This document shows positions 1 through 5,692 of a stretch of DNA of 43,344 bases, in pieces. Source of the DNA: Flavobacterium psychrophilum (lineage in GTDB: Bacteria; Bacteroidota; Bacteroidia; Flavobacteriales; Flavobacteriaceae). A model generated the notes under the pieces. That model was not told where the DNA came from. It was given only the letters and a program-made list of their open reading frames with translations, and searched no databases. Location of the stretch: positions 1 through 43,344 of the forward strand of contig CALPPS020000010.1 in assembly GCA_943325515.2 (NCBI GenBank), given 5' to 3'. The translations under genes were made by a program, and so were the position numbers. Every line of letters starts with the position of its first letter. The first letter of the stretch is position 1.

Positions 1-132
1 ATATTGCGCTACCTCAACTTTTTCAGCAACCGATTTAGCGAGAGGTCTAAGTATTTGTGAAAGTAAATCTATATCTAAAACGCTAATAGCATGAACGATA
101 TAGTAAATAGTGTATTCTTTTTCTACTTTCAT
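1..132 (-). CDS. Hypothetical protein, 3' part outside window
   Basis: An open frame begins with ATG at 132 and runs without a stop for 44 codons to the left window edge. The visible N-terminus starts MKVEKEYTIYYIVHAISVLD, with a mix of charged and hydrophobic residues and no signal peptide. Its ATG overlaps the TGA of the upstream membrane-protein gene in an ATGA arrangement, so translation of the two is probably coupled and this is the last visible gene of the minus-strand operon beginning near 2012. Family not recognised; the missing C-terminal part prevents any functional call. Confidence 0.6.
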   Translation of the reverse strand, partial: MKVEKEYTIYYIVHAISVLDIDLLSQILRPLAKSVAEKVEVAQY

Positions 133-563
133 TGTTTTAAGCTTTTTATTGAATGAAAAATAATTGCCACTGGAGCACCAAGTAATACTGAAGTTCCAAA
201 AATACGGTAATAGGTAAAACTATAATAGTCGGTACTAAAAAGGTAAATGTAGAGTTCAATGCCTTCAATTATACCAAAAGCTACTAAAATCCCAATTAAA
301 TAGTTAAATAAGAAGGGCTTTAAAAAGTTCACAATAAACTTAAAGTTTAAAGTACTTGTTGGAAATTTGTAAGTTAGAAATATCCAAAAAGCTGCTCCAA
401 TTGGTGCGCCATAAATAATGGCATTTTTACAAACTCTCCGCCAAGAAGAACGCCAAAAAAATTCCTTTAGTATTGAATAATTTAAATGAATAATAGCCAA
501 CATCCAATAAGCTAATATTGTTCCTATAATATAAAACAAGAGTATTTTTTTAAACTTTTTCAT
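129..563 (-). CDS. Four-helix integral membrane protein with internal duplication
   Basis: Small membrane protein of unknown function, 144 residues. Four hydrophobic segments are visible at about residues 7-27, 47-65, 84-108 and 120-138. The two halves resemble each other: a segment with an LF-Y-IG-IL pattern comes first, and a segment with GAPIGAAF or GAPVAIIF follows 43-45 residues later, so the protein looks like a tandem copy of a two-helix unit. I chose the ATG at 563, four bases after the upstream gene's stop; an in-frame ATG at 587 would overlap that gene by 20 bases and add eight residues. The stop overlaps the next gene's start (ATGA). Gene order suggests it works with the soluble proteins of the same operon, but no function is recognised. 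Confidence 0.65.
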   Translation of the reverse strand: MKKFKKILLFYIIGTILAYWMLAIIHLNYSILKEFFWRSSWRRVCKNAIIYGAPIGAAFWIFLTYKFPTSTLNFKFIVNFLKPFLFNYLIGILVAFGIIEGIELYIYLFSTDYYSFTYYRIFGTSVLLGAPVAIIFHSIKSLKQ

Positions 564-567
564 AGGG

Positions 568-1005
568 TTATTGATTATTGTTTTCATAGTTCATTTCAAT
601 ATATAAAGGTCCCATTAAACGATGTTCAATAGTAGAAGTAAATTCAAACTCAGCATCAGAAACTAAAGCAGTTCCAACTTGTTTAAATTGAATTATGTCA
701 TTGTCACCAGAAAAATAAACTGCCATTCCAGTAACTATATCGTTAAACAAAGTTTCTTTAATGGTTATTTTCTGAAACATTAAATCACTAGGTCTTAAGG
801 AAACCAATGCTAAATCTTCTTCTGGATATTCAGGTATAATTGTGGTTCCTGAAATATAAATTCGATTGGGATTAAGAGTAAAAAGTACCATTTCATTTGC
901 AGCATCCTCTTCTTGAATGACAACAAAATAAGCTTCTTTCTCTTCTTTATTTCGTTTGTAATTTTTAAAACGAACTACTTGTCCAATTTTAAATTGTCTT
1001 TTCAT
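568..1005 (-). CDS. Hypothetical soluble protein with possible SH3-like N-terminus
   Basis: A 145-residue acidic protein without signal peptide or membrane segment. The N-terminal part (FKIGQVVRFKNYKRNKEEKE, then AYFVVIQ) alternates hydrophobic and polar residues with a GQVV-turn, reminiscent of a small SH3-like beta barrel; this is inference from pattern only. The remainder predicts mostly beta strands and ends in an Asn-rich tail. It lies 70 bases downstream of the coiled-coil gene and directly upstream of the four-helix membrane protein, in the same direction, so an operon is likely. Family not recognised. Confidence 0.6.
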   Translation of the reverse strand: MKRQFKIGQVVRFKNYKRNKEEKEAYFVVIQEEDAANEMVLFTLNPNRIYISGTTIIPEYPEEDLALVSLRPSDLMFQKITIKETLFNDIVTGMAVYFSGDNDIIQFKQVGTALVSDAEFEFTSTIEHRLMGPLYIEMNYENNNQ

Positions 1006-1075
1006 AAAATAATAATTTTAAAATTAATTGTGAATGTTTGCTTTGTTAAAGCTTATTTTTCAAGTATAAAAAAAA

Positions 1076-1519
1076 TCAATTAGTAAAAATATGCTTGTAT
1101 TTATTGTAATATTGTTGCAATCGATGTATTTCTTCTCTAGCTGTGTTTGCTTTTTTAAAATCATGATTTTTTGTTAAATTCTCTTTTATTATGGTAAGCT
1201 CCTCTATTTTACTTTCAACCTTTTTTAAAAAGACTTCATCAACCTCTTTGAATTGTAATAATGTCAATGTAATAAATAGCAATTCATCTAAATTTTGGGA
1301 ATTTAATTCTAGGCTGTTATACTTTTTTTTCAACTCCAACTCTATTACTTCTAATTGTTTATACAAATCTTTACTTACCTCTCCAATTTCTCTTAGACCT
1401 TCAGAATAGCCATATTTTTTCAAGGATTTATCAAAACGGACCTTGTTTTTATAAAGTGCTACTTTTAAAGTGAAAATTTGATATAGTATACTTTCTTTTA
1501 ATTGTTTTATCTGTTGCAT
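1076..1519 (-). CDS. Coiled-coil protein with UVR-like C-terminal motif
   Basis: A 147-residue, highly charged, predicted all-helical protein with no signal peptide. Residues about 55-75 and 90-140 have heptad-like spacing of Leu/Ile/Val with Lys/Glu, suggesting coiled coils. Near the C-terminus (about residues 118-136) the pattern HDFKKANTAREEIHRLQ resembles the UVR helical hairpin of UvrB/UvrC and ClpC-type proteins (typical form DFEKAAxLRDxIxxL). That resemblance is short and could be convergent. The gene follows the NGGWI protein by 25 bases on the same strand and probably belongs to one transcript with it. Function unknown. Confidence 0.6.
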   Translation of the reverse strand: MQQIKQLKESILYQIFTLKVALYKNKVRFDKSLKKYGYSEGLREIGEVSKDLYKQLEVIELELKKKYNSLELNSQNLDELLFITLTLLQFKEVDEVFLKKVESKIEELTIIKENLTKNHDFKKANTAREEIHRLQQYYNKYKHIFTN

Positions 1520-1544
1520 TTAATTAATTATTAAAAATAGTTTG

Positions 1545-2012
1545 TTAATTCTCGTTTATTATTCTAATTAATGTAGGTGCATTATGTTGCAATGCTACTC
1601 TGAAAAAATTGAAGTAGGTTCCTTCGGCTAGTCTCTCAATAATATCAATATGTTTTACACTCTTTGGTAAGGCTGGAAAAAGCAAAGAGAAATGATGCAC
1701 TTGACCTTTACTTTTAAAGTAATACTTTGATGGAGCCAATGGGATATTGATAGCACTAACCATTCTATAGCGTGTTTCAGAACCTATAGGCCTAATAAAA
1801 CAACCCGAATCCATTTGTATCCATCCACCATTAACATACATTTTTGGTGCGATATACACAAAGTCAATTCTGGTGAAGTCATCATCCAGACTGATTTTTT
1901 CAATACCCAAATGTTCGTTTGGTGTAAATTTGGAAATAGGGTTTTTGAACACCTCTGGTTCAATTTTTTTTAGAAGCTCTTCTTGAGTTTCTGTTTCATA
2001 ATTTGTTTTCAT
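1545..2012 (-). CDS. NGGWI-motif protein, copy A (paralogue of the gene at 4135)
   Basis: A 155-residue protein with a predicted beta-rich domain at about residues 35-140. Key blocks are TRIDFVYIAPKMYVNGGWI, RYRMVSAINIPLAP and FSLLFPALPKSVKHIDIIE. The same blocks occur in the same order in the protein encoded at 4135-4551, so the two are paralogues. The pattern also resembles a domain common in Bacteroidota secreted proteins (strand, GxWI, then FPPLPKGxxxIDFIE near its end), but no signal peptide is seen here. The frame stays open upstream to 2120, but that stretch is the terminator hairpin of the preceding gene, so I chose the ATG at 2012. It heads the operon that continues to the left edge. 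Confidence 0.65.
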   Translation of the reverse strand: MKTNYETETQEELLKKIEPEVFKNPISKFTPNEHLGIEKISLDDDFTRIDFVYIAPKMYVNGGWIQMDSGCFIRPIGSETRYRMVSAINIPLAPSKYYFKSKGQVHHFSLLFPALPKSVKHIDIIERLAEGTYFNFFRVALQHNAPTLIRIINEN

Positions 2013-2039
2013 AAATAGATTGTTTATAGATTTATGGGT

Positions 2040-2065
2040 CAAAATTATAATGGCACTCCGTACAA
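2040..2065 (-). promoter_or_regulatory. Putative promoter of the NGGWI-A operon
   Basis: On the minus strand a TAATTTTG (2047 to 2040) matches the flavobacterial -7 consensus TAnnTTTG, with a TTG at 2065-2063. The 15-base spacer is shorter than the usual 17-23. It lies between the lipoprotein terminator and the ATG at 2012. Confidence 0.4.
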
Positions 2066-2091
2066 TATATAAGGAGTTAAAAAAAAATAGT

Positions 2092-2121
2092 AAAAAAAAT
2101 GCCTTACGGGTGTAAGGCATT
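2092..2121 (-). terminator. Intrinsic terminator of the lipoprotein gene
   Basis: Perfect 10-bp stem AATGCCTTAC/GTAAGGCATT around a four-base loop, followed on the minus strand by eight T. It lies 22 bases after the lipoprotein stop codon and separates that gene from the NGGWI-A operon. Confidence 0.85.
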
Positions 2122-2143
2122 GATTAATAATTAGAGGAAATAA

Positions 2144-2665
2144 TTAGTCGACAAGATGTAATACTTTTTTAACTTGACTATAATCATTCCAATTGGTTTT
2201 TGGATTAGCCATTCTGTTTGACGGAGATATAATTACGTATCTGAAAGTTATTACTCCTGGATTTGGAATTGCAACAGCATTAGTACTTTGTGCATAAAAT
2301 GTAATATATCCCAATCCATAATTAAAACTAATATTAATATTAGTATTAGTATCTGGTAAAGGTGACCATTCCGTAATTCCATTTGCAGTATATTTTCTAA
2401 AAACAGAAACAATACCACTATCGACTACACTCTGAGTAATTGATGTAGCTCCAGTTAAATTTGCCGTCCATACTGACCCACCGTTTTGGGAAGTCCAATT
2501 TGTCGACGCAGTAGAAAATGGAGTTGAACCAAGTACATTTGCATTCCCATCAATCCCGTTTGCTCCTGCTGGCCCAGTTGCACCGTCAGCCCCATCTTTA
2601 GAGCAACTAATTGTTAGTAATGCAATAACTAAAACTAACCCTGTTTTAAAAAATGTTTTTTTCAT
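2144..2665 (-). CDS. Lipoprotein with short collagen-like Gly-X-Y stretch
   Basis: Predicted outer-membrane or periplasmic lipoprotein of 173 residues. The N-terminus is a classical signal (MKK, then a hydrophobic core) ending in a lipobox LTISC, so Cys21 would be lipidated. Directly after it is a collagen-like stretch of about six Gly-X-Y triplets (GADGATGPAGANGIDGNA). The rest is a Ser/Thr/Asn-rich, beta-predicted domain. Proteins of this layout are common in Bacteroidota and usually unassigned. It has its own terminator at 2092-2121 and lies 82 bases downstream of the small HTH gene, so it may be controlled by it. Function unknown. Confidence 0.75.
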   Translation of the reverse strand: MKKTFFKTGLVLVIALLTISCSKDGADGATGPAGANGIDGNANVLGSTPFSTASTNWTSQNGGSVWTANLTGATSITQSVVDSGIVSVFRKYTANGITEWSPLPDTNTNINISFNYGLGYITFYAQSTNAVAIPNPGVITFRYVIISPSNRMANPKTNWNDYSQVKKVLHLVD

Positions 2666-2720
2666 AATTAATTTAATTTTCCGTACTCTTATGGCTTTTC
2701 GGTTACGCCTCGTTTTTTAT

Positions 2721-2747
2721 AGTGGGTTCTGAACTCCACTTTTTTTG
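2721..2747 (+). terminator. Terminator-like hairpin facing the plus strand
   Basis: Hairpin AGTGG-GTTC-T-GAAC-T-CCACT (one bulged T) followed by seven T on the plus strand. No plus-strand gene lies upstream, so the transcript it would end is unexplained; on the minus strand it would sit in the leader of the lipoprotein mRNA, without a U-tract. Confidence 0.45.
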
Positions 2748-2963
2748 TTATCTAATAAATCTAAATTCGCAATCATTATTATATATATAGGACATTCTAT
2801 TGTAGTCATAAACAATAGGAGCGTTCAAGTAATTTTTCATAAATGAAATATAATTATATACTGTCCTTTCAGTCATAGAGAGTTTCGAAGCCAATTGCTT
2901 TGGGCTTCCTGTAATCTCTTTAACTATGAGATTATCTAATTCTATGATGATTCGTATATCCAA
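2748..2963 (-). CDS. Small helix-turn-helix protein
   Basis: A 71-residue protein that is little more than one winged-helix-type HTH: helix GSPKQLASKLSM, turn, recognition helix TERTVYNYISFMKN, then a wing ending IVYDYNRMSYIYN. Such stand-alone HTH proteins are frequent in Bacteroidota and usually described only as HTH-domain proteins. The visible start is TTG at 2963; an in-frame stop lies a few codons upstream and no ATG is available, so the start is uncertain. The gene is divergent to the WYL regulator across a 165-base gap and may co-regulate the lipoprotein that follows it. DNA binding is inferred from the fold, targets are unknown. Confidence 0.6.
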   Translation of the reverse strand: MDIRIIIELDNLIVKEITGSPKQLASKLSMTERTVYNYISFMKNYLNAPIVYDYNRMSYIYNNDCEFRFIR

Positions 2964-3155
2964 ATTGTTGCAATTTTAAAACTTGAAACTGAAACTGAAA
3001 TTCAGTAGGGGCACACCATTTTTTTTAGATTTTTAATGTCATTTTTATTTCCAATTTTTATTGTATTTATCAATTACTGAGCAAAGATTTATACCTAAAC
3101 CGCATAGTTCATACGGAATGATTTTTTTATGTATTTTTATAAAAAAAAATTAGCA

Positions 3156-4133
3156 ATGGATATTTCAAAATCTGCATACAGTAGGTATAGAGTTATAGAT
3201 AAAATGTTGAAAAACATATATAGACCCTATCCTAGTTTATTAGATATTCAAGAAGCTTGTGAGCGAAGTTTAGATAAAACACCTTCTTTGGATACTCTTG
3301 AAAAGGATATTAGAAACATGAAACTTTCAGATGTTTTTGAAGCTCCAATTGTTTTTTGTAGAAAAAATCTAGGATATTATTACGCTAACCCGAATTATTC
3401 TATAAACTCTATTCCTCTTACTGATAGTGATATATCAAGCATTAAAGAAGCCCTTGATTTGATAAAAAATCTAGGTGGTGGTAATAGGGTCAACGAACGA
3501 TTTAGTGATGCTATCCAGAAAATACTTGCTACTTATAAAGAAGAATTTCCGGATAGTGATACCAAAAGAAAAATAATTCTAACTGATTATGTTGAAGGTG
3601 CTAAAGGATATGAAAACTTTGATATTTTGTTTGCAGCTTGCAAAGACAAATCACCTATTTCTTTTGTACATTACTCATTTCAAAAAAGGGAATACAAATC
3701 TGTAATTGTTCATCCCATTTTGCTAAAAGAATTTGATAACCGATGGTATCTCATAGGATTTTCTGAACATCATAATTCCTTGCGAACCTTCGGTTTTGAT
3801 AGGATATATAAGCCAATTGCTTTAAGAAGAAAATATACAACGTCAACTCAAACTGATATTGATTTGTATTGCAACGATATATATGGTGTCTATCCGTACG
3901 AAAATCAATCCAAACAAATAGTGGTTTTTAGAACAACTCCACTTATCACAAACTATTTTGAATCTTATCCCATTCACGAAAGTCAAAAAGCCAAAAAAAA
4001 TCAATATGGATTTTGTGATTTTTCTATTGATGTAGTTCCCAGTTTAGAGCTAGTTAGAGAACTGCGTTCCTATGGTAAAGAAATAAAAGTTTTATCACCA
4101 GAATGGTTAGTAAAAGAAGTAAAAAATAATTAA
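3156..4133 (+). CDS. WYL-domain transcriptional regulator
   Basis: A 325-residue regulator of the HTH-WYL type. The N-terminus (about 1-65) carries a winged HTH (YSRYRVIDKMLKN, then SLDTLEKDIRNMK). The middle and C-terminal parts form the WYL domain, with NRWYLIGF containing the W-Y-L triad and RTFGFDRI after it, followed by the WCX-like C-terminal extension. WYL domains bind nucleic acid or nucleotide ligands, and family members (CapW, BrxR) control several phage-defence systems. I preferred the ATG at 3156 because relatives begin close to the SxxRYRxID block; an ATG at 3129 would add nine Lys-rich residues. The stop is one base from the next start, so the gene is probably co-translated with NGGWI copy B. 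Confidence 0.85.
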   Translation: MDISKSAYSRYRVIDKMLKNIYRPYPSLLDIQEACERSLDKTPSLDTLEKDIRNMKLSDVFEAPIVFCRKNLGYYYANPNYSINSIPLTDSDISSIKEALDLIKNLGGGNRVNERFSDAIQKILATYKEEFPDSDTKRKIILTDYVEGAKGYENFDILFAACKDKSPISFVHYSFQKREYKSVIVHPILLKEFDNRWYLIGFSEHHNSLRTFGFDRIYKPIALRRKYTTSTQTDIDLYCNDIYGVYPYENQSKQIVVFRTTPLITNYFESYPIHESQKAKKNQYGFCDFSIDVVPSLELVRELRSYGKEIKVLSPEWLVKEVKNN

Positions 4134-4134
4134 A

Positions 4135-4551
4135 ATGAAGCCTCAAAAAAAGAAATACATATTTCACCCGACAGTAATAAAAAACTACCGCGGAAACCCT
4201 GATTTACTTAGAATACATTTAACACCCGAATATACTAAAGTTGATTTTGGATATGTGGCCAAGGATATTTATATCAATGGAGGATGGATTAGAATTGCCC
4301 CAGAAACATTCATTGAAAATAAAATTACCAAGCAACGATATACACTTGTAAATGCTGAAAATATTCCAATTGCACCCATGCATCACTATTTTGAAACAAA
4401 AAAAGACTGGAGATACTTCTCTTTGATTTTTCCTCCAATTCCTCAAAATGATTGTTTGTTAAACATAATTGAAGTTGAAAATGGAACTCCAAATGATTTT
4501 AACTATTACAATATTGAATTAAAAATGGCTGATGCTATAGAAATTATATGA
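4135..4551 (+). CDS. NGGWI-motif protein, copy B (paralogue of the gene at 1545)
   Basis: A 138-residue soluble, beta-predicted protein. The blocks TKVDFGYVAKDIYINGGWI, RYTLVNAENIPIAPMHHYF and FSLIFPPIPQNDCLLNIIE match copy A block for block. Both lack a signal peptide. The gene starts one base after the WYL regulator's stop codon, so the two are almost certainly one operon. The conserved FPPxP-(10)-IIE ending resembles a domain found in Bacteroidota secreted proteins, but no catalytic residues stand out. It might be a ligand-binding or immunity-like partner of the regulator; this is speculation from context. Confidence 0.7.
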   Translation: MKPQKKKYIFHPTVIKNYRGNPDLLRIHLTPEYTKVDFGYVAKDIYINGGWIRIAPETFIENKITKQRYTLVNAENIPIAPMHHYFETKKDWRYFSLIFPPIPQNDCLLNIIEVENGTPNDFNYYNIELKMADAIEII

Positions 4552-5099: not shown

Positions 5100-5393
5100 T
5101 TATAGGTGGTTTTTCATATCCATCATTACATGTAGAATTCTAACAACTTCAATTTCCTCAAGAGATACTATTTGATAGAAAATAATATGTTCAGCAGTTT
5201 TAAAGCCTAATACATTTTTTTCCACTATATCATAAGATTTTCCTTGATTTGGTTTATTTGCCAATTCCTGACAAGAATCCATAAGTAACGTGTAATAAAT
5301 CTCTGCTTGATTTTCAGACCAAGTCTTTACTGTATAATCCCAAATATCATTTAAATCTTCAACAGCTTTGTTGTTTAAATAAAACTTCGCCAT
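5100..5393 (-). CDS. parE: ParE-family toxin of a type II toxin-antitoxin module
   Basis: A 97-residue protein of the RelE/ParE fold. The N-terminal helix pair (VEDLNDIWDYTVKTWSENQA) and the C-terminal strands (FKTAEHIIFYQIVSLEEIEV, then RILHVMMD) with RILH near the end are typical of ParE, which poisons DNA gyrase in characterised members. The ATG overlaps the antitoxin stop by one base (TAATG), the usual translational coupling. ParE activity is inferred from family; ribosome-dependent RelE-like activity is less likely with this motif set and this partner. Confidence 0.88.
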   Translation of the reverse strand: MAKFYLNNKAVEDLNDIWDYTVKTWSENQAEIYYTLLMDSCQELANKPNQGKSYDIVEKNVLGFKTAEHIIFYQIVSLEEIEVVRILHVMMDMKNHL

Positions 5394-5635
5394 TACTTTT
5401 TTCTAGCCTTAAGAGTTTCCAAATGCTTTTTAGGATCAAAGTCAACTGCGCGACCACTTTCAATTCCTTCACGAATTGCATTTCGTAAAGTGATTATGCG
5501 GCTTTCTTCTTCTTCCAAAAGTCTAAGTCCAGCACGTACTACTTCACTAGCGTTGCTAAAGCGACCTTTCGAAACGGTTGTTTCTATAAAATTCTCGAAA
5601 TGATTTCCTAAAGATATTGATGTGTTTTTTCCCAT
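5393..5635 (-). CDS. parD: ParD-family antitoxin
   Basis: An 80-residue antitoxin. The N-terminus (KNTSISLGNHFENFIETTVS) is a ribbon-helix-helix DNA-binding domain, followed by the hallmark KGRFSNASEVVRAGLRLLEE. The C-terminal half (IREGIESGRAVDFDPKKHLE) is the usual flexible toxin-binding tail. The frame stays open to 5692, but the extra 19 codons cover the operator at 5649-5674, so I chose the ATG at 5635. ParD-ParE complexes repress their own promoter, which agrees with the operator-like repeats just upstream. The module sits beside gene debris, as TA loci in accessory regions often do. Confidence 0.9.
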   Translation of the reverse strand: MGKNTSISLGNHFENFIETTVSKGRFSNASEVVRAGLRLLEEEESRIITLRNAIREGIESGRAVDFDPKKHLETLKARKK

Positions 5636-5648
5636 GATTTCTTCATTT

Positions 5649-5674
5649 TTGGTAAAGTTACCAAATTTTGGTAA
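5649..5674. promoter_or_regulatory. Putative ParD operator, three TTGGTAA half-sites
   Basis: TTGGTAA at 5649-5655, its exact inverse TTACCAA at 5658-5664 (two-base spacer), and a third TTGGTAA at 5668-5674. The array ends 14 bases upstream of the parD ATG, the place expected for an autorepression site. Confidence 0.7.
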
Positions 5675-5692
5675 TGAGGCAAATACTTTCAT

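What the first reader, a model, noticed from the sequence alone, without database searches (positions are those of the whole stretch)
1545..4551. Paralogous NGGWI proteins flanking a WYL regulator and a mini-HTH: candidate new system
Two soluble proteins share the blocks NGGWI, RYxxVxAxNIPxAP and FSLxFPPxPxxxxxxxIIE. Copy A heads a leftward operon (coiled coil, small beta protein, duplicated membrane protein, unknown). Copy B starts one base after a WYL regulator facing right. Between them lie a stand-alone HTH gene and a collagen-like lipoprotein. WYL regulators often control phage-defence or stress modules. The idea that the NGGWI protein is a ligand sensor or modulator for the regulator, with the membrane protein as effector, is inference.
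Basis: partly seen in the sequence, partly recalled or inferred. Interest (0 to 1): 0.72.

Follow-up and report, generated by a model that had tools for sequence, protein, structure and literature searches.

The report
WYL regulator with paired partner proteins
A bacterial gene switch of the WYL type travels with a small partner protein of unknown family, and the same short DNA sign marks its own genes and a second gene group that carries a sister of that partner, so the stretch looks like one self-contained, undescribed control module.

Summary
In 29 of 31 loci found with copy B, a WYL gene (in two of them broken) lies directly upstream, -23 to +5 nt; the other two loci start at a contig end. 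Searching 395 genomes of the class with WYL alone, the 13 best matches all have an NGGWI gene next; the next 8 loci have none (G002). The main new result is an inverted repeat, CCGYA-N7-TRCGG, 36-40 nt before WYL in 16 of 16 and 35-46 nt before the leftward operon in 15 of 15 testable Flavobacterium-type loci. In 11 genomes, 17 of 24 exact sites lie at this locus. So WYL most likely controls its own operon and the copy A operon. The window's coiled coil is kin to UVR-motif coils beside NGGWI genes in distant Bacteroidota. Mini-HTH, DUF805 RNA and lipoprotein form a separate inserted unit. Phage defence is not supported. Sign of control, ligand and effector are inferred or unknown.

The parts
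1..132 (-). Last gene of the leftward operon in view, cut by the window edge (44 residues left); resembles the protein at L001:7186-7644
   Evidence: translation; same sequence in the L001 protein listed (by eye)
129..587 (-). Membrane protein, longer form (152 aa); forms of 67-84 aa in other loci match its first half
   Evidence: relatives in 11 of 31 loci
568..1005 (-). [not shown]
1076..1519 (-). Coiled coil, relative of UVR-motif coils found beside NGGWI genes in distant Bacteroidota
   Evidence: profile of six other coils hits it at E 2e-8 among 3347 ORFs; UVR motif over Pfam cut-off in L212 only
1545..2012 (-). NGGWI copy A (155 aa), first gene of the leftward operon
2040..2047 (-). -7 box TAATTTTG of the copy A promoter, 10 bp after the operator
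   Evidence: same spacing in 16 of 16 promoters of this side
2058..2074 (.). WYL-type operator before copy A, CCGTACAATATATAAGG (9 of 10 positions)
2098..2121 (-). Terminator-like hairpin that ends the lipoprotein unit
2144..2665 (-). Collagen-like lipoprotein (inserted unit)
   Evidence: relatives in 8 loci, window counted
2675..2744 (-). DUF805 RNA (RF03081), leader of the lipoprotein
   Evidence: 81.7 bits, gathering score 51.1
2748..2963 (-). Mini-HTH protein (71 aa)
   Evidence: HTH matches below cut-off; in 12 other loci
2988..3006 (.). Candidate operator of the mini-HTH, ACTGAAACTGAAATTCAGT
   Evidence: 13 of 13 mini-HTH loci
3100..3116 (.). WYL operator before WYL, CCGCATAGTTCATACGG (10 of 10 positions)
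3156..4133 (+). WYL-WCX transcription factor (most likely start 3156; the ORF opens at 3129)
4135..4551 (+). NGGWI copy B (138 aa), one base after WYL; Ig-like beta sandwich in the model

Best explanation
This is a self-contained two-operon module of Bacteroidota. A WYL-WCX regulator is made together with its NGGWI partner B. As a dimer it binds the 17-bp repeat CCGYA-N7-TRCGG at its own promoter and at the promoter of the leftward operon, which carries the sister protein A and variable companions (UVR-motif coil, beta protein, membrane protein). Shown by sequence: the WYL-B coupling, the repeat at both promoters, its fixed 10-bp distance to the -7 box on the A side, and its gathering at this locus in 11 genomes. 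Inferred: the WYL protein is what binds the repeat; its WYL domain senses a nucleic-acid-type ligand; it activates the A promoter when it holds the ligand, as SiwR does in mycobacteria (about 55% against repression 45%); B (and A, by feedback) adjusts the regulator by direct contact (about 50%). The output is probably a stress response, and its biochemical nature is unknown.
For: WYL directly before B in 29 of 31 loci, -23 to +5 nt. WYL-only search: 13 of 13 best matches have NGGWI next, 0 of the next 8 loci (G002). In a tree of 49 WYL proteins, 27 of 28 coupled rows form one all-coupled group (support 100/99). WYL and B distances correlate, r 0.94 over 28 loci. Operator: of 29 WYL starts, 18 score 9-10 of 10 and three more have a perfect ACGCA-N7-TGCGT; A side 15 of 15 testable Flavobacterium-type loci plus L030; also before DUF932 genes in L020, L021, L022; before WYL in five of the nine newly found loci; 17 of 24 exact genomic sites at the locus. 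-7 box exactly 10 bp after it in 16 of 16 A-side promoters, at any other offset in at most 2 of 16. SiwR is a homodimer that binds a 19-bp imperfect palindrome between -35 and -10 of a neighbouring operon and activates it (passages, PMC10693628). The best sequence matches with solved structures are chains of the PafBC entries.
Against: No expression, binding or genetic data exist here. CapW and BrxR, also wHTH-WYL proteins, are repressors at such palindromes (passages). The missing -33 TTG is not a sign of activation: 54 ordinary -7 boxes from the same loci show no clear -33 peak either. On the WYL side the distance to the -7 box is 15 or 16 bp in most, not 10. No operator before WYL in L018, L021, L029, L030, doubtful in L023-L025, none near WYL in G923, G781, G867, G983. 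For MCGCA-N7-TGCGK in six distant genomes, 40 sites against 17 for the reversed control, only 9 of the 40 at NGGWI loci, so a wider regulon there is possible. The exact pattern is no commoner genome-wide than its reversed control (24 against 26). No WYL-NGGWI fusion among the 120 listed of 238 hits. WYL-A distances correlate less, r 0.47 over 19 loci.
Confidence: 0.62

Rival explanations
1. A phage-defence module under a WYL repressor of the CapW/BrxR kind: the repressor lets go on infection and the membrane protein or other companions act as the effector.
For: WYL regulators of defence bind palindromes at promoters; the spacing of R219, F221, R225 in alignment A4 equals that of CapW R183, F185, R189; patchy occurrence (6 strong of 299 Flavobacterium genomes); single defence-like neighbours such as a NERD-UvrD protein in L001 and one reverse transcriptase (the RT is L023:3693-4772 by eye).
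Against: Of the 8 module proteins only the WYL protein matches PADLOC; among 142 neighbour proteins, one per sequence cluster, no PADLOC family is matched by more than two, and many of the Pfam families listed are housekeeping enzymes (25 of 121 shown); no copy of B in viral contigs, phages or plasmids and none of A in viral contigs.
Confidence: 0.15
2. B and A are not regulators at all: they are ordinary cytosolic beta-sandwich proteins that serve the same output, and B merely shares a transcript with its regulator.
For: The fold is a common Ig-like sandwich; related domains occur in secreted proteins and as single genes without WYL; an NGGWI domain is fused to an AAA+ ATPase in L021, which speaks for a working rather than a regulating role.
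Against: B, not A, is the one found with WYL throughout and that changes in step with it.
Confidence: 0.3
3. The WYL protein is a plain autorepressor of both operons, released by a small molecule; stress and nucleic acids have no part in it.
For: By my count of positions the repeat overlaps or adjoins the -33 region at both promoters; repression by occlusion is common.
Against: The exact 10-bp spacing to the -7 box recurs in distant promoters (L021, L022, L028, L121; read by eye; L031 has 11 and L027 15), which a simple road-block would not need.
Confidence: 0.3

Closest known systems
SiwR of Mycobacterium smegmatis (WYL activator of a neighbouring operon)
   Same: WYL regulator with a palindrome just upstream of the -10 region of an adjacent operon (passages of PMC10693628)
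   Different: SiwR controls DinB-like genes; no NGGWI partner was mentioned in the passages seen; here two operators and a co-translated partner
CapW and BrxR (WYL repressors of defence systems)
   Same: wHTH-WYL plan with a C-terminal dimerisation/WCX part, palindromes at the promoters (passages)
   Different: they control CBASS or BREX; here no defence genes, and a partner protein travels with the regulator
PafBC
   Same: best sequence matches with solved structures are chains of PafBC entries (E 6e-11); WYL domains
   Different: heterodimer of two WYL proteins with a DNA-damage regulon (passages); here one WYL protein plus a non-WYL partner and, in Flavobacterium-type genomes, a local regulon
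Ig-like beta-sandwich proteins YcdA, YjhA and MPT63
   Different: lipoprotein or secreted (YjhA recalled), no significant sequence match; fold likeness only

Membership tests
WYL-WCX transcription factor | WYL and WCX domains over cut-off | tested here: met
   47.6 and 29.8 bits against 21.8 and 23.9
WYL-WCX transcription factor | N-terminal winged HTH | tested here: inconclusive
   no HTH family listed for the WYL protein; the residues before the WYL domain look like one by eye
WYL-WCX transcription factor | palindromic site at its promoter | tested here: met
   sequence only; binding not tested
WYL-WCX transcription factor | binds DNA as a dimer and senses a ligand | not testable with these tools
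   needs purified protein
Known anti-phage defence system | defence effector beside the regulator | tested here: not met
   PADLOC matches only the WYL protein among 8 module proteins; no family in more than two of 142 neighbours, one per cluster; single defence-like genes do occur
UVR-motif proteins (PF02151) | UVR motif over Pfam's cut-off | tested here: inconclusive
   window coil: no UVR match; met in L212 with 23.9 against 21.5; 19.2 and 18.9 in L025 and L118; the window coil is kin to these
DUF805 RNA (RF03081) | score over the gathering score | tested here: met
   81.7 against 51.1 bits
Ig-like domains of the YcdA/YjhA/MPT63 kind | same fold and sequence kinship | tested here: inconclusive
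   [not shown]

The most novel reading that the evidence does not exclude
NGGWI proteins are a new class of partner proteins of WYL regulators: B, made at the ribosome next to WYL, sets the regulator's response, and A, made from the target operon under the same operator, competes with B or closes a feedback loop while it recruits UVR-coil and AAA-type partners (fusions in L021 and L211) to act on nucleic acid. This would be a Bacteroidota stress circuit in which a regulator and its target each carry one half of a paralogous pair.
Probability: 0.33. Interest if true: 0.78.

Novelty: new variant of a known kind. Interest (0 to 1): 0.6.

Why it matters
WYL regulators are widespread and the ligands of most are unknown (recalled). 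A WYL clade bound to one small partner, with a short operator at two promoters, gives a ready test bed: binding, partner contact, ligand and the sign of control can each be tested with two promoters and two proteins. It also gives a first context for a beta-sandwich family: copies A and B match no Pfam or NCBIfam model. The library searches (listings, with the start of the abstracts) turned up no description of it; that library lacks most subscription journals.

Tried and rejected
Phage defence: scanned the 8 module proteins and 142 neighbours against PADLOC. The 142 are one per sequence cluster, 110-900 aa, within 6 kb before and 5 kb after WYL-B in L001-L031; larger and smaller proteins and the window's own neighbours were left out, and only 25 of 155 families are shown, so this is a partial test. 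Mobile origin: B found in no viral contig, phage or plasmid, A in no viral contig (A was not searched in phages or plasmids). WYL-NGGWI fusion: none among the 120 listed of 238 hits. Activation from lack of a -33 box: dropped, since the control set of 54 ordinary boxes shows no clear -33 peak. DUF805 RNA as part of the core: dropped, since it is over cut-off in 59 of 121 Flavobacterium genomes and none of the 28 fetched DUF805 loci outside this locus (about 3 kb each, two of them 1.7 kb) has the mini-HTH. Solved relatives of NGGWI: one chance-level match, CARD8, E 0.21. Fold of the beta protein: no clear match. A sigma-70 promoter scan found no more than shuffles (27 against 30.2); that model does not fit Bacteroidota (recalled). 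Papers on DUF805 RNA: none held the phrase, and the eight with DUF805 (listing) were not followed.

Absence from the fold lists excludes no family. E-values within scripts are for small sets of ORFs. In some searches only part of each genome's candidates was scored (at most 5 to 12), so rare members may be missed.
Full report
What is in the window. The locus at 1-4551 holds two transcription directions. To the right: a WYL-WCX regulator (likely start 3156) and, one base later, NGGWI copy B. To the left: a mini-HTH, a DUF805 RNA and a collagen-like lipoprotein that end in a hairpin with a T-run (2098-2121); then copy A, a coiled coil, a small beta protein, a membrane protein and a cut gene. A and B are paralogues. 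Neither matches Pfam, NCBIfam or PADLOC. No whole genome is held for the window.

Coupling of B to WYL. A profile of B, turned into two short peptide patterns, found 31 loci in one genome for each of 84,980 species. 29 have a WYL gene directly upstream; L014 and L015 start at the contig end. L017 keeps only fragments of WYL and B, and WYL in L026 is split in two frames. The distance between stop and nearest plausible start is -23 to +5 nt, in lineages whose WYL proteins are down to 34% identical to the window's. A second NGGWI gene lies in 19 of these 31 loci; in L021 an NGGWI domain heads a 677-aa AAA+ protein. 'Flavobacterium-type' below is my label for L001-L013, L016, L019 and the window.

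Whole genomes. In 20 genomes behind these loci, 38 of 39 NGGWI matches lie within about 5 kb of a WYL gene; the exception, G019:C103, has none in the 8 kb read. In 299 genomes of the genus of F. luteum the NGGWI profile gave 16 with a match, six of them strong (E below 1e-40). The WYL profile gave five matches at E 1e-154 or better, the next at 4e-69. These five are the strong six less G005, the genome of the decayed L017. All five had already given loci (G021 and G046 hold the contigs of L003 and L012), so this adds only that no WYL of this kind stands alone in the sample. In the phylum sample 10 of 395 genomes matched the NGGWI profile, only the centre genome strongly.

Reverse test. In 395 genomes of the class, searched with WYL alone, the 13 best matches (E 3.2e-99 or better) all have an NGGWI gene downstream, and 0 of the next 8 loci do (G002 is L004). 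In two of the 13 (G867, G983) the gap is 76-83 nt, and in G989 the B gene is split. Nine of the 13 (eight genomes) had not been seen before. In a tree of 49 WYL proteins, 27 of 28 coupled rows form one all-coupled group (100/99); the exception, L121, has only a weak NGGWI relative beside it, not B.

The operator. Upstream of WYL lies an inverted repeat, CCGYA-N7-TRCGG. Of 29 loci where the WYL start could be set (window included), 18 score 9-10 of 10; L027, L028 and L031 have a perfect ACGCA-N7-TGCGT; L022 has a 16-bp form; L023-L025 are doubtful; L018, L021, L029 and L030 have none. In the 16 Flavobacterium-type loci it lies 36-40 nt before the start codon; in L020 28 and in L026 53. The same repeat lies 35-46 nt before the first gene of the leftward operon, whichever gene is first, in 15 of 15 testable Flavobacterium-type loci (L002 is cut off) and in L030 (distances corrected for the inner Met where the ORF opens early). 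L001 and L008 lack the HTH unit and have one shared operator. In the nine newly found loci (scored with A or C at the first and G or T at the last position) it lies before WYL in five (G1027, G801, G884 twice, G989) and before the second NGGWI gene in G781, and was not found near WYL in G923, G867 and G983. In 11 whole genomes the exact pattern has 24 sites, 17 of them at this locus; the reversed control pattern has 26, so the genome-wide number is background and the gathering at the locus is the signal. In the window, exact or one-mismatch sites are only these two, but 13 of 100 shuffles reach two; the evidence is the position across loci, not the count. The DUF932 genes next to the module in L020, L021 and L022 also have the repeat. 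In six distant genomes the variant MCGCA-N7-TGCGK has 40 sites against 17 for the control, 9 of the 40 at NGGWI loci, so the regulon may be wider there.

Geometry. On the A side a TAnnTTTG box (5 or 6 of 6 matches) lies exactly 10 bp after the operator in 16 of 16 promoters; any other offset reaches that in at most 2 of 16. On the WYL side offset 15 does so in 12 of 18 and offset 16 in 5, but offset 7 also in 7. The promoter consensus of Bacteroidota is recalled. I first read the missing -33 TTG as a sign of activation, but 54 ordinary boxes have no clear -33 peak either, so that argument is void. What remains for activation is the fixed spacing and the likeness to SiwR. This is weak; I put activation at about 55%.

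Companions. A profile of six coils from other loci finds the window's coil at E 2e-8 among 3347 ORFs; the other hits at 1e-4 or better are all in NGGWI loci, one of them inside an ATPase-like protein in L211. The set searched is rich in NGGWI loci, with some control loci. The UVR motif is over cut-off only in L212 of the coils scanned. AAA or DnaA-type ATPase domains are over cut-off in L021, L122 (not a WYL locus) and L214, and below it in L211. vWA domains are over cut-off in L210 and L215 and below it in L009. A fusion of NGGWI to AAA+ (L021) and of a UVR-like coil to an ATPase-like protein (L211) link the three kinds. What they do is not known.

The inserted unit. In 13 of 13 loci with the mini-HTH a 19-base motif ACTGAAAYTGAAWTTCAGT lies 5-26 nt before it (17 or more of 19 positions; 14 such matches in all in 455,703 bases). 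Of 17 loci scanned beside the window, the 12 with the mini-HTH all have a DUF805 RNA right after it and the other five do not; of these five, L028 has DUF805b. Elsewhere in Flavobacterium DUF805 RNAs are common, and the mini-HTH was not beside the 28 that were read. The HTH unit therefore sits between WYL and A as a module of its own, present in many but not all Flavobacterium-type loci.

Function. Defence models among the neighbours are scattered singles, and many of the Pfam families listed are housekeeping enzymes. I take a stress role over defence on the strength of SiwR and PafBC, which is analogy. Membership in the WYL-WCX family is met by domains; that it works like SiwR is a likeness, not a membership.

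Papers. Only passages were read of PMC9122601, PMC9122588, PMC11804915, PMC10693628 and PMC12839542 (in the last only reference-list lines). The searches listed no paper on this module.

Noticed in passing
window 2675-3006: Mini-HTH with its own 19-base operator, followed by a DUF805 RNA and a lipoprotein; lipoprotein families differ between loci while HTH and RNA stay.
   Followed up: partly
L126-L155 (28 of 30): DUF805 RNA is common in Flavobacterium (59 of 121 genomes over cut-off; up to five matches a genome in the table), without the mini-HTH in the 28 loci read.
   Followed up: partly
L021:11647-13680: NGGWI domain at the N-terminus of an AAA+ ATPase (677 aa), downstream of WYL, B and a DUF932 gene.
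   Followed up: partly
L122:766-1914: Weak NGGWI relative (107 aa) directly beside a DnaA-like ATPase, without WYL in the 8 kb read.
   Followed up: partly
L202, L204, L207: WYL proteins just outside the NGGWI-coupled group with operator-like repeats upstream (9 of 10 in a looser scheme); L202 holds a relative of the L021 AAA+ protein.
   Followed up: no
window 5100-5692: Small two-gene unit that looks like ParE and ParD (by eye) between copy B and an rnhA-purN-acpP region (by eye); in L019 that region follows copy B directly.
   Followed up: no
L017, and L198/L215: Decayed copies: fragments of WYL and B near a contig end in Flavobacterium fluvii (L017); B split in two frames in G989.
   Followed up: no
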